A DNA stretch of 64,000 bases, taken from assembly GCF_900169265.1 (NCBI RefSeq), contig NZ_FXYX01000005.1:1-64000 (forward strand), in the 5' to 3' direction. Shown here one piece after another: positions 1-41,887 of the stretch. Under the pieces are notes generated by a model, which did no database searches, had not been told where the DNA came from, and saw only the letters and a list, made by a program, of their open reading frames with translations. Numbering within the stretch: the first letter of the stretch is position 1; each line of letters opens with the position of its first letter. Origin of the DNA: Brevibacterium iodinum ATCC 49514. Its GTDB lineage: Bacteria > Actinomycetota > Actinomycetes > Actinomycetales > Brevibacteriaceae. The position numbers and the translations under genes were made by a program.

Positions 1-333
1 CCGTCTGGCATCGATCCGGTCGTCCTTGCCCGTGGCGTGCCGGTCGCGAGCATTCATGCTGGCAGCCTCGGCGACCGTATAGCCTGCGTCGGCGACATGG
101 TCGGCCAGGATCGCCCCGTAAGTGCCGATACCCTCGATCACCCACAGGGTGTTCAGGTCCCCGCGAGTACGGCGGCCGACCCACGTCAGGGCTCGTTTGA
201 TGCCAGCTTTCGTGGTCGGGAACGTGGCAGTGTCGACGTGCTCACCAGTGTGGGTGAGGACACTGTAGACGTGGTTCTTCGCGTGGGTGTCGACGCCCAC
301 GACAAACGCGTATAAATGCGAGATGATAGTCAT
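1..333 (-). CDS. IS110 family transposase, N-terminal part (cut by window edge)
   Basis: The reading frame starts at ATG 333 and runs off the left edge, giving 111 residues of a RuvC-like DEDD recombinase. The visible catalytic motifs are GVDTH (D15), the VIEGIGTYG block (E67) and KDDRIDAR (D105, D108), in the order and spacing of IS110 transposases. These enzymes move the element without target duplication, and in studied members they use a bridge RNA encoded in a non-coding end of the element. The missing part would hold the rest of the RuvC-like domain and the C-terminal serine domain. I cannot tell whether the copy is intact. The family call is firm. Confidence 0.9.
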   Translation of the reverse strand, partial: MTIISHLYAFVVGVDTHAKNHVYSVLTHTGEHVDTATFPTTKAGIKRALTWVGRRTRGDLNTLWVIEGIGTYGAILADHVADAGYTVAEAASMNARDRHATGKDDRIDARR

Positions 334-371
334 GACGGTTCGTGATTCTCCTGTGTCAGAGCGGATGAGGT

Positions 372-390
372 CCGACCGTCGAACGGTCGG
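372..390. repeat. Perfect 8-3-8 inverted repeat upstream of the IS110 gene
   Basis: CCGACCGT (372-379) and ACGGTCGG (383-390) are exact reverse complements around CGA. It would form a stable stem in RNA of either strand. It lies about 40 bp upstream of the transposase start, where a structured element RNA or a transposase operator is expected. Confidence 0.7.
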
Positions 391-546
391 CTCCGGTCCG
401 GGAGATAGTCACGTCGAAACACTACTGTGATGAGTCACGTTCGGTCAGGAACGGACAACCTTCTGATCAAGTTATCGATGTGGGCCGAGCCGGTGCCGAC
501 CGCCCACCAATCATCAGACAGATCCCGACGAGGACATCGTTCGAGT

Positions 547-643
547 CAGTAGTTCTGAGGGTCATGATGATCGATGGGACGGTCAGTTCCTACTCTGCCA
601 GCCAGTCCCAGACCAGCCACCATCAATACTCACAGTAGTTCTG
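547..643. repeat. Direct repeat CAGTAGTTCTG, two copies
   Basis: The 11-mer CAGTAGTTCTG occurs at 547-557 and again at 633-643, the second copy ending 7 bp before the stop codon of the neighbouring MFS gene. The repeat may mark the target and end of the IS element, or be a relic of an earlier insertion. Chance is possible but not likely at this distance. Confidence 0.4.
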
Positions 644-650
644 GGAGGGA

Positions 651-14517: not shown

Positions 14518-14563
14518 GTCGGACCTGCGGAATAACCATGAGATGGGCACGGTTGGCATTGAT

Positions 14564-15295
14564 ATGAAGATCGAGATCTGGTCGGACATCGCCTGCCCCT
14601 GGTGCTATATCGGAAAACGTCGGTTCGAGGATGCCCTCGACGGCTTCGCTCACAGGGACGACGTCGACGTACAATGGCGCAGTTTCCAGCTTGATCCGAG
14701 CCTGCCCGATCACTTCGACGGCACCGAGACCGAATACCTCAGCCAGATGAAGGGCATGCCCGCCGATCAGGTGCGGCAGATGTTCGACCATGTCACTCAG
14801 CAGGCCGCCGGAGTCGGCCTGAACTATGACTTCGACTCGATCGTCGTGGCCAACAGCTTCACCGCCCATCGCTTCCTCCACTTCGCCAAGACCCACGGAC
14901 TGATCTCCGAGGCCAAGGAGATGCTGCTCTCGGGCCACTTCGAGAAGGGTCGCGACATCGGTGACGTCGACTACCTCGCCGAGGTGGGAAGTGAGATCGG
15001 CCTCGATCCCGACGAGGTCCGCCGAATCCTCGCAACCGATGAATTCTCGGATGAGGTACGGGCCGATATCAGTGAGGCCCGTTCGCTCGGCGCCAATGGA
15101 GTCCCGTTCTTCGTCATCGACCGCAAGTACGGCATCTCCGGAGCCCAACCGGCGGAGGTCTTCTCTCAGGCACTCGAGACGGCTTGGGACGAAGGACGGA
15201 AGCTCACGGTGCTCGCGGACACTCCACAGTCAGCGGATGACTCGACAGAGGATTTCTCCGTCGGCGCCGCCTGCGGCCCCGACGGCTGCAACTGA
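14564..15295 (+). CDS. DsbA family oxidoreductase, FrnE-like
   Basis: A 243-residue thioredoxin-fold protein with the active-site CPWC at residues 11-14 (MKIEIWSDIACPWCYIGKRRFE). The helical insertion and GVPFFVIDRKYGISGAQP near the C-terminus match the FrnE/2-hydroxychromene isomerase-like branch of DsbA proteins. There is no signal peptide, so it acts in the cytoplasm. An alternative ATG lies at 14543; neither start has a clear ribosome site. A terminal GAACGPDGCN-like tail carries two further cysteines. A 78-bp perfect palindrome begins 7 bp after the stop. Confidence 0.88.
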   Translation: MKIEIWSDIACPWCYIGKRRFEDALDGFAHRDDVDVQWRSFQLDPSLPDHFDGTETEYLSQMKGMPADQVRQMFDHVTQQAAGVGLNYDFDSIVVANSFTAHRFLHFAKTHGLISEAKEMLLSGHFEKGRDIGDVDYLAEVGSEIGLDPDEVRRILATDEFSDEVRADISEARSLGANGVPFFVIDRKYGISGAQPAEVFSQALETAWDEGRKLTVLADTPQSADDSTEDFSVGAACGPDGCN

Positions 15296-15302
15296 CCAAA
15301 AC

Positions 15303-15380
15303 ACCCCCTATTGCTACCTGACGGCGGCTCAGCAACCTCGCGCGAGGTTGCTGAGCCGCCGTCAGGTAGCAATAGGGGGT
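15303..15380. repeat. 78-bp perfect palindrome (39-bp arms, no spacer)
   Basis: Bases 15303-15341 and 15342-15380 are exact reverse complements without a single mismatch, centred on CTCGCGCGAG. RNA from either strand would fold into a stem of about 37 bp. It lies between the DsbA-like gene and MgtC, so it probably stops or shields transcription, although no clear T run follows (TTGTTCG). It could also be a dispersed repeat unit. Arms of this perfection are rare for an ordinary terminator. Confidence 0.9.
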
Positions 15381-15414
15381 TGTTCGTTGGGGGTGGGGCT
15401 ATGATGAAGGCACT

Positions 15415-16089
15415 ATGGTCAACTCCGCGTCGGTTGAGAACATCATGAGCAGCACCGGCCTGTTGGAAGCCGGCCTGCTGCTGGCCAGCTTCGTCCTGTG
15501 TTCCCTCATCGGCTTCGAGCGGCAGTTCAGACAGAAGGCCGCCGGGTACCGCACCCACGTGCTCGTGGGCATCGGCACCTGCGCTTTCACTCTGATCTCC
15601 GCGTATGGATTCGCCGGAGTGCTCGAGAACGACGTCCGCCTCGACCCTTCACGGATCTCCGCGCAGATCGTCTCCGGAATCGGCTTCCTCGGCGCCGGAG
15701 TCATCTTCAAAGGACGCAACATGGTCCGCGGACTCACCACCGCCGCAACCATCTGGGTCACCGCGGCCGTCGGAATGGCCTGCGGTGCGGGAATGCTTCC
15801 CTTGGCCACGATGCTCACTGCCCTGCACCTGTTCACACTGTTCGTCATCGCGCCTCTCATCCGCAAGATCCCCAACAGCGACCACCGCAAACTCCTGCGC
15901 ATCACCTACCGCGACGGGGCCGGTGTCCTCCGCGAGATCCTCGCTCTGGCCGGCCGAATGGGTTTTGCGAATACCATCGTCGATTCGCGCCGCTTCGAGT
16001 CCCCCGACGAGACGCGGATGGTGCAGGTCGATGTGAGGTTCGACGGAAGCGGTCTCTGCACCTGCTCGTCGCCCCGCTCATGGAACTGA
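15415..16089 (+). CDS. MgtC/SapB family membrane protein, C-terminus frameshifted
   Basis: The first 150 residues show the MgtC membrane domain: ASFVLCSLIGFERQFRQKAAGYRTHVLVGIG, GIGFLGAGVIFKG and RGLTTAATIWVTAAVGMACG. A soluble C-terminal domain follows. Near 16050 the frame changes: the annotated frame ends in an unrelated CTCSSPRSWN, while another frame gives the expected HLLVAPLMELSGVDTV and runs to 16160. One missing base near 16050-16053 explains this. The intact protein would have 248 residues. The role is probably magnesium homeostasis or acid stress, by family. GATGAAGG upstream supports ATG at 15415. Confidence 0.8.
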   Translation: MVNSASVENIMSSTGLLEAGLLLASFVLCSLIGFERQFRQKAAGYRTHVLVGIGTCAFTLISAYGFAGVLENDVRLDPSRISAQIVSGIGFLGAGVIFKGRNMVRGLTTAATIWVTAAVGMACGAGMLPLATMLTALHLFTLFVIAPLIRKIPNSDHRKLLRITYRDGAGVLREILALAGRMGFANTIVDSRRFESPDETRMVQVDVRFDGSGLCTCSSPRSWN

Positions 16090-41795: not shown

Positions 41796-41887
41796 CACTC
41801 CGCCGGTGCGAATAGCTCCACCGGTCAGAACACGCTGAGGCGGGTGGTGCTCAACGGCATCACCCGCCTCAGTCGTCTCCGCCGAGA

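What the first reader, a model, noticed from the sequence alone, without database searches (positions are those of the whole stretch)
15303..15380. 78-bp perfect palindrome with no spacer between the DsbA-like gene and mgtC
The two 39-bp arms match without error, centred on CTCGCGCGAG. Ordinary terminators have shorter, less perfect stems and a T run, which is missing here. Perfect long palindromes are unstable in many bacteria, so maintenance suggests a function (dispersed repeat unit, cruciform, transcription barrier, or double-stranded RNA source) or a very recent origin.
Basis: seen in the sequence. Interest (0 to 1): 0.6.

Follow-up and report, generated by a model that had tools for sequence, protein, structure and literature searches.

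The report
Repeated gene-end palindrome hosting RNA-guided transposons
The 78-base palindrome is one of several dozen near-identical hairpin sequences that sit just after genes throughout the genomes of many Brevibacterium species, probably as two-way transcription stops, and at least three related RNA-guided transposons use different stretches of it as their landing site.

Summary
The palindrome is real: 39+39 bp, perfect, no spacer. It is one of an estimated 60-70 dispersed copies in this genome, a Brevibacterium (genus inferred). The 56-bp core is near-perfectly palindromic in almost every copy, with compensatory changes beating all 500 shuffles. Copies are intergenic: in an unbiased 852-kb sample 15 of 17 lie within 20 nt of a gene's 3' end, against 8.5% expected. 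The copy after dsbA is kept in 15 species, whatever gene follows, so assembly artefact and very recent origin are excluded. Best reading: a family of T-run-less, probably bidirectional terminator or mRNA 3'-end hairpins; 49 of 53 other long intergenic hairpins here also lack T runs.

Each carries upstream of its transposase gene a guide matching its own target segment; guide and target class agree at 34 of 34 sites. This parallels IS621 and REP in E. coli. The window's first 634 bases are such an insertion. How the palindrome spreads, and why its sequence as well as its pairing is conserved, remain open.

The parts
15303..15380 (.). perfect 78-bp palindrome, no spacer (extends imperfectly to 15299-15384)
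15314..15369 (.). 56-bp core shared by the family (CTACCTGACGGCGGCTCAGCAACCTCGCGCGAGGTTGCTGAGCCGCCGTCAGGTAG); this copy carries the compensated C-G to T-A variant at position 13 from the centre
14543..15295 (+). DsbA-like gene; its stop codon lies 7 nt upstream of the palindrome
   Evidence: the palindrome follows this gene in 15 species
15415..16089 (+). mgtC gene; downstream neighbour here, replaced by a convergent gene in most relatives that keep the palindrome
1..634 (-). left part of an IS110-family element (transposase N-terminus 1-333, noncoding guide region 334-634, left end at 634), cut by the contig start
   Evidence: DEDD_Tnp_IS110 hit at contig positions 4-300; left end
635..645 (-). 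CCCAGAACTAC: remaining outer flank of a second palindrome copy, interrupted by this IS110 element; on the minus strand it follows the 3' end of the gene at 651-1847
549..559 (-). CTCAGAACTAC: inferred left target guide of the IS110 bridge RNA, matching its own target flank
524..530 (-). CGTCGGG: inferred right target guide, pairing with CCYGACG of the palindrome arm (one G-T wobble for CCTGACG)
   Evidence: layout (type A element of a relative)

Best explanation
The palindrome belongs to a Brevibacterium family of perfect extragenic palindromes (56-bp core, often extended to 60-84 bp by flanks such as CCCCTAATTG/CAATTAGGGG) sitting directly behind stop codons. Shown: dispersed multicopy family; pairing kept by compensatory change; strict gene-3'-end location; retention at orthologous sites; use by three IS110 subtypes as a fixed landing site; match between each subtype's noncoding guide and the segment it hits. 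Inferred: transcribed from either side, it forms a very stable hairpin that ends transcription or protects and defines mRNA 3' ends in both directions, like the U-tract-less ('I-shaped') terminators proposed for GC-rich bacteria. Inferred: the IS110 elements exploit it as a common site where insertion does not break a gene, by bridge-RNA pairing, each subtype reprogrammed to a different segment of the arm.
For: Position: 0 of 42 copies inside genes and 36 of 42 within 20 nt of a gene 3' end (8.5% expected by random intergenic placement, p about 1e-32). In the unbiased sample 15 of 17 (p about 1e-14). Divergent spacers are under-used, 3 of 35 against 27%. Over 218 distinct copies in the genus, 205 have an adjacent 3' end, median distance 9 nt, and 90 lie between convergent genes. 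Structure: 96.7% of cells paired, 9 pairs with two-sided change, all measures above 500/500 shuffles. Persistence: at the dsbA junction in 15 species, with the downstream gene replaced; 7 of 7 sampled copies kept in synteny in G032 at 93.4% DNA identity, some with compensated changes. The genome's other long hairpins sit at the same kind of place without T runs. IS110: 22 of 22 left ends and 13 of 14 right ends lie in palindromes at three fixed positions. Guide class equals target class at 34 of 34 sites; matching exceeds 5000/5000 permutations. The type A guide lies in an internal loop of a long stem in the predicted fold. Transposases match PF01548 and PF02371. The IS end is found only in palindrome-rich genomes, 8 of 17 against 0 of 40, p 1.5e-5.
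Against: No RNA data. In tandem copies oriented by the upstream gene, one-sided changes give 27 G-U against 23 A-C, so there is no sign that pairing is selected specifically in the sense RNA; DNA-level selection or template-switch correction of imperfect palindromes could also make the compensatory pattern. The core sequence, not only its pairing, is conserved: 92% at the dsbA site against 73% at fourfold sites, which a terminator alone does not need. 3 of 42 copies lie between divergent genes. Gene calls come from my own simple caller.
Confidence: 0.66

Rival explanations
1. A non-autonomous mobile repeat (REP- or MITE-like) spread by a transposase in trans; the gene-3'-end location is only where insertions are tolerated.
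For: Dozens of near-identical copies, core sequence conserved beyond pairing, genus-limited in the genomes sampled, close association with IS elements.
Against: No Y1/RAYT transposase in the genome. Nearly all sampled copies are shared in synteny between two species 93% identical. Sites compared with and without it show no clean boundary or target duplication. Many copies start within 3-9 nt of the stop codon, tighter than tolerance alone suggests.
Confidence: 0.18
2. A DNA-level site: the duplex palindrome binds a sequence-specific dimeric protein (chromosome organiser or transcription roadblock) or extrudes as a cruciform.
For: Sequence constraint beyond pairing; symmetric pattern with no G-U preference; bidirectional contexts; copies in G032 spread along the chromosome (KS p 0.58).
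Against: An arm of 28 or more near-invariant bases is longer than usual protein sites. Strict placement behind stop codons favours a transcript role. No candidate protein was identified.
Confidence: 0.1
3. The palindrome is chiefly an RNase III substrate or mRNA 3'-end stabiliser rather than a terminator.
For: The hairpin is a 28-39 bp duplex in RNA, long enough for RNase III from general knowledge; REP hairpins in E. coli have such roles (general knowledge).
Against: 90 of 218 copies lie between convergent genes, where two-way termination is the simpler need. No RNA data either way.
Confidence: 0.15
4. Assembly fold-back artefact.
For: Perfect inverted repeats with no spacer can arise in assembly.
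Against: The same element is at the orthologous site in 14 other genomes including complete ones, and dozens of others are dispersed.
Confidence: 0.01

Closest known systems
REP elements (repetitive extragenic palindromes) of enterobacteria and pseudomonads, as targets of IS621, ISPpu9, ISPpu10 and others (Tobes and Pareja 2006, PMC1525189)
   Same: Dispersed extragenic palindromes, used as specific insertion sites by IS110-family elements.
   Different: Longer, perfect, spacer-free; single units; no Y1/RAYT transposase in the genome; found only in Brevibacterium among genomes sampled.
I-shaped (U-tract-less) intrinsic terminators and 'HS-U-lack' transcript ends of GC-rich Actinobacteria (Streptomyces clavuligerus, PMC8269248)
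   Same: Stable GC-rich hairpin behind a gene, no U tract, often usable from both sides.
   Different: Those are individually unrelated sequences; this is one sequence family repeated dozens of times and conserved in sequence across species.
IS110-family elements with bridge RNA / seekRNA (IS621, PMC11208160; PMC11187229)
   Same: DEDD + Transposase_20 enzyme, guide-bearing noncoding region upstream of the gene, left guide matching the left target and right guide pairing with the right target; retargeting by guide change.
   Different: At least three sibling subtypes in one genome read three different segments of the same palindrome. Native target cores appear to be CC or CG rather than the CT of IS621 (inferred from junctions).
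TRIT terminator motif of Mycobacterium tuberculosis (Gardner 2011, cited in PMC3526491)
   Same: A repeated terminator motif in an actinobacterium (from memory and the citing paper).
   Different: Not compared by sequence; recalled lead only.

Membership tests
REP/BIME elements with RAYT | dispersed extragenic palindromes in many copies | tested here: met
REP/BIME elements with RAYT | short (20-40 nt) imperfect hairpin with GTAG/GGAG at the 5' foot | tested here: not met
   56-84 bp near-perfect palindrome; on either strand it begins CTAC and ends GTAG
REP/BIME elements with RAYT | genome encodes a Y1 (RAYT) transposase | tested here: not met
   PF01797 absent, while the same search rings in 5 control genomes
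REP elements as IS110 targets | IS110-family elements insert at fixed positions in it | tested here: met
   22/22 left ends, 13/14 right ends
Canonical (L-shaped) intrinsic terminator | hairpin followed by a U run | tested here: not met
   no T run after the arms of the copies read
I-shaped (U-less) terminator | stable hairpin directly behind a gene without a U tract | tested here: met
I-shaped (U-less) terminator | ends transcription | not testable with these tools
   no RNA data available
IS110 family (for the inserted elements) | DEDD_Tnp_IS110 and Transposase_20 domains | tested here: met
   types A and B from relatives; own-genome hits to PF01548
IS110 family (for the inserted elements) | upstream noncoding region with guide loops matching the target | tested here: met
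   RNA expression not tested
MITE | target-site duplication and a clean empty site | tested here: inconclusive
   orthologous sites lacking the element have unrelated spacer sequence

The most novel reading that the evidence does not exclude
A genus-specific, sequence-conserved terminator cassette that spreads through genomes by an unidentified route without RAYT, and that serves as a standing safe landing site for a set of bridge-RNA transposons which diversify by re-aiming their guides along its arms: an RNA-guided transposon lineage evolving inside one palindrome.
Probability: 0.3. Interest if true: 0.7.

Novelty: new variant of a known kind. Interest (0 to 1): 0.52.

Why it matters
It provides a large natural set of guide-target pairs (three sibling IS110 subtypes, dozens of insertions, several species) on a single defined target, including co-varying guide and flank (AATTGCTAC against AGAACTAC). 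That is a ready data set for mismatch tolerance, core choice and natural reprogramming of bridge RNAs outside IS621. It also points to a U-less, two-way terminator part for GC-rich Actinobacteria and explains why short-read Brevibacterium assemblies break at these places.

Tried and rejected
Rfam: only sub-threshold hairpin look-alikes (microRNA precursors, F6), rejected. RAYT: none. RNA wobble test: no preference for G-U over A-C in sense-oriented copies, so not usable as support for RNA-level selection. Empty-site search for target duplications: no clean boundaries. The covariance-model count saturates at 84 strand hits per genome. Literature: no description of this repeat found in a CC-licensed library; subscription papers were not searchable.

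Full report
Observation. The palindrome is exactly as described: arms 15303-15341 and 15342-15380, no mismatch, no spacer, with a few more paired bases outside it. The next best inverted repeat in the window has a 17-bp arm. As RNA the region folds at -90 kcal/mol, z = -13 against shuffles. It follows the DsbA-like gene's stop codon by 7 nt and precedes mgtC by 34 nt; both gene names are supported by Pfam. No T run is present.

A dispersed family. From 43 places read, the family has a 56-bp core CTACCTGACGGCGGCYCAGCAACCTSGCGCSAGGTTGCTGRGCCGCCGTCAGGTAG, often extended by flanks that may pair (CCCCTAATTG with CAATTAGGGG) or not (CAGAA on one side). In an unbiased 852 kb of this genome (contig 36, most of contig 35, and the window) there are 17 copies, 14 of them unbroken. 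That scales to about 60 intact copies in 3.54 Mb, beside 22 sites interrupted by transposons. In 57 genomes of the genus, 39 hold at least one match to a covariance model, and 17 hold 70 or more strand hits. In a sample of 22 genomes from other families of the order there was none. That this genome is a Brevibacterium is inferred from these.

Pairing is kept. On 34 copies, 96.7% of cells pair, nine pairs show changes on both sides, and all five measures exceed all 500 shuffles and every slid control. The changes concentrate at positions 3, 13, 17 and 23 from the centre. The compensatory pattern alone does not say whether RNA or DNA pairing is selected. I oriented 102 copies in tandem contexts by the upstream gene and found 27 G-U and 23 A-C one-sided changes, so there is no RNA-strand bias. 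Template-switch repair of imperfect palindromes could also restore symmetry.

Where it sits. None of 42 copies lies in a gene, and 36 lie within 20 nt of a gene 3' end, against 8.5% expected by random placement in the same intergenic DNA. In the unbiased sample it is 15 of 17. Among 218 distinct copies from the genus, 205 have a gene 3' end next to them, at a median of 9 nt; 90 lie between convergent genes and 8 between divergent genes. The other long intergenic hairpins of the sample (53, unrelated to the family) favour the same places, and only 4 have a T run. In this organism the absence of a T run is therefore normal for gene-end hairpins. U-less, highly structured transcript ends are reported in Streptomyces clavuligerus, where they were compared with I-shaped terminators (PMC8269248).

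Age. Behind dsbA the palindrome is present in 15 of 30 species read, with DsbA 79-100% identical. The downstream neighbour differs: mgtC in this genome and in G032, G001 and G067, and a convergent gene in most of the others. The element thus travels with the 3' end of dsbA. Its core is 92% identical between species, against 73% at fourfold sites of the gene; six species have the exact consensus core. In G032 (93.4% identical DNA), all seven sampled contig-36 copies with syntenic flanks are present at the same junction. One G032 copy is missing here. The C-G to T-A double change that distinguishes this window's copy from that of G032 is itself a compensated change.

RNA-guided transposons aim at it. 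Many contigs end a short way beyond an interrupted palindrome. The interrupting DNA is IS110-family: complete copies in relatives encode transposases of about 355 aa matching DEDD_Tnp_IS110 and Transposase_20. In this genome 22 of 22 left ends and 13 of 14 right ends lie in palindromes. Three subtypes hit three positions: type A after CTAC of the outer arm, type B after CTACCTGACGGC, and type C at the centre after CAACCTCGCGC. In the noncoding region upstream of the transposase, where IS110 elements carry the bridge RNA or seekRNA (PMC11208160, PMC11187229), the variable segment between fixed TGAC motifs reads AATTGCTAC or AGAACTAC (A), CCTGGCGG (B) or CCTCGCGC (C). Each equals the target just left of its own junction, allowing wobble and a one-base shift for B. 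Guide class and target class agree at 34 of 34 sites, and matching exceeds all 5000 permutations. Within type A, the guide follows the two flank variants of the palindrome. The left guide lies in an internal loop opposite the right guide CGTCGGG in the predicted fold of a type A element; type B also folds strongly, with its guide segment at least partly paired. The shared IS end occurs only in palindrome-rich genomes (8 of 17 against 0 of 40, p 1.5e-5). The window carries one of these insertions at 1-634.

Function. I judge a two-way, U-less terminator or 3'-end hairpin most likely (0.66, with the IS110 landing-site role attached), on position, stability, retention and company. Termination itself is inferred. 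What a terminator does not explain is the conservation of sequence rather than pairing alone. Gene conversion among copies, a binding protein, or slow continued copying are open possibilities. No RAYT is present, and sites lacking the element show no clean boundary.

Known or new. IS110 elements homing to extragenic palindromes are known (IS621 and REP; ISPpu9, ISPpu10; PMC1525189). New here, as far as the searchable literature shows, are the palindrome family itself, which differs from REPs in length, perfection and lack of RAYT, and the set of sibling IS110 subtypes retargeted along one palindrome.

Noticed in passing
window 1-650 (-): The window's contig begins inside an IS110-family element that has interrupted a second palindrome copy lying right behind the 3' end of the gene at 651-1847; its inferred guide CTCAGAACTAC matches its target flank.
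   Followed up: yes
L009:8222, L110 near 1521, G000 C36:373802: A further short sequence with the end TGGAGTGGTCCCCAATAG(TTGGACTG) interrupts or replaces the palindrome centre in several copies; possibly a remnant of another IS family.
   Followed up: no
L105 and L092 (G073 C3): Nested insertion: a type A IS110 element sits beside a type C element within the same palindrome.
   Followed up: partly
L050 (G000 C57:59201): The one type A right end not in a palindrome lies after GGAACGCGCCAGG in a stretch resembling a tRNA 3' half.
   Followed up: no
L021:11949 against L075:1519: At an orthologous gene end a distant relative has a shorter hairpin with the same centre (CCTCGCGCGAGG) and compensated differences in the arm, suggesting the family grades into ordinary diverged gene-end hairpins.
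   Followed up: partly
window 41835-41872: A second, unrelated hairpin with a 17-bp arm.
   Followed up: no
copies with distance 3 nt: Many neighbouring genes end in TAA formed by the element's own flank (TAATTG-CTACC), unusual in a GC-rich genome; the element may supply the stop codon.
   Followed up: partly
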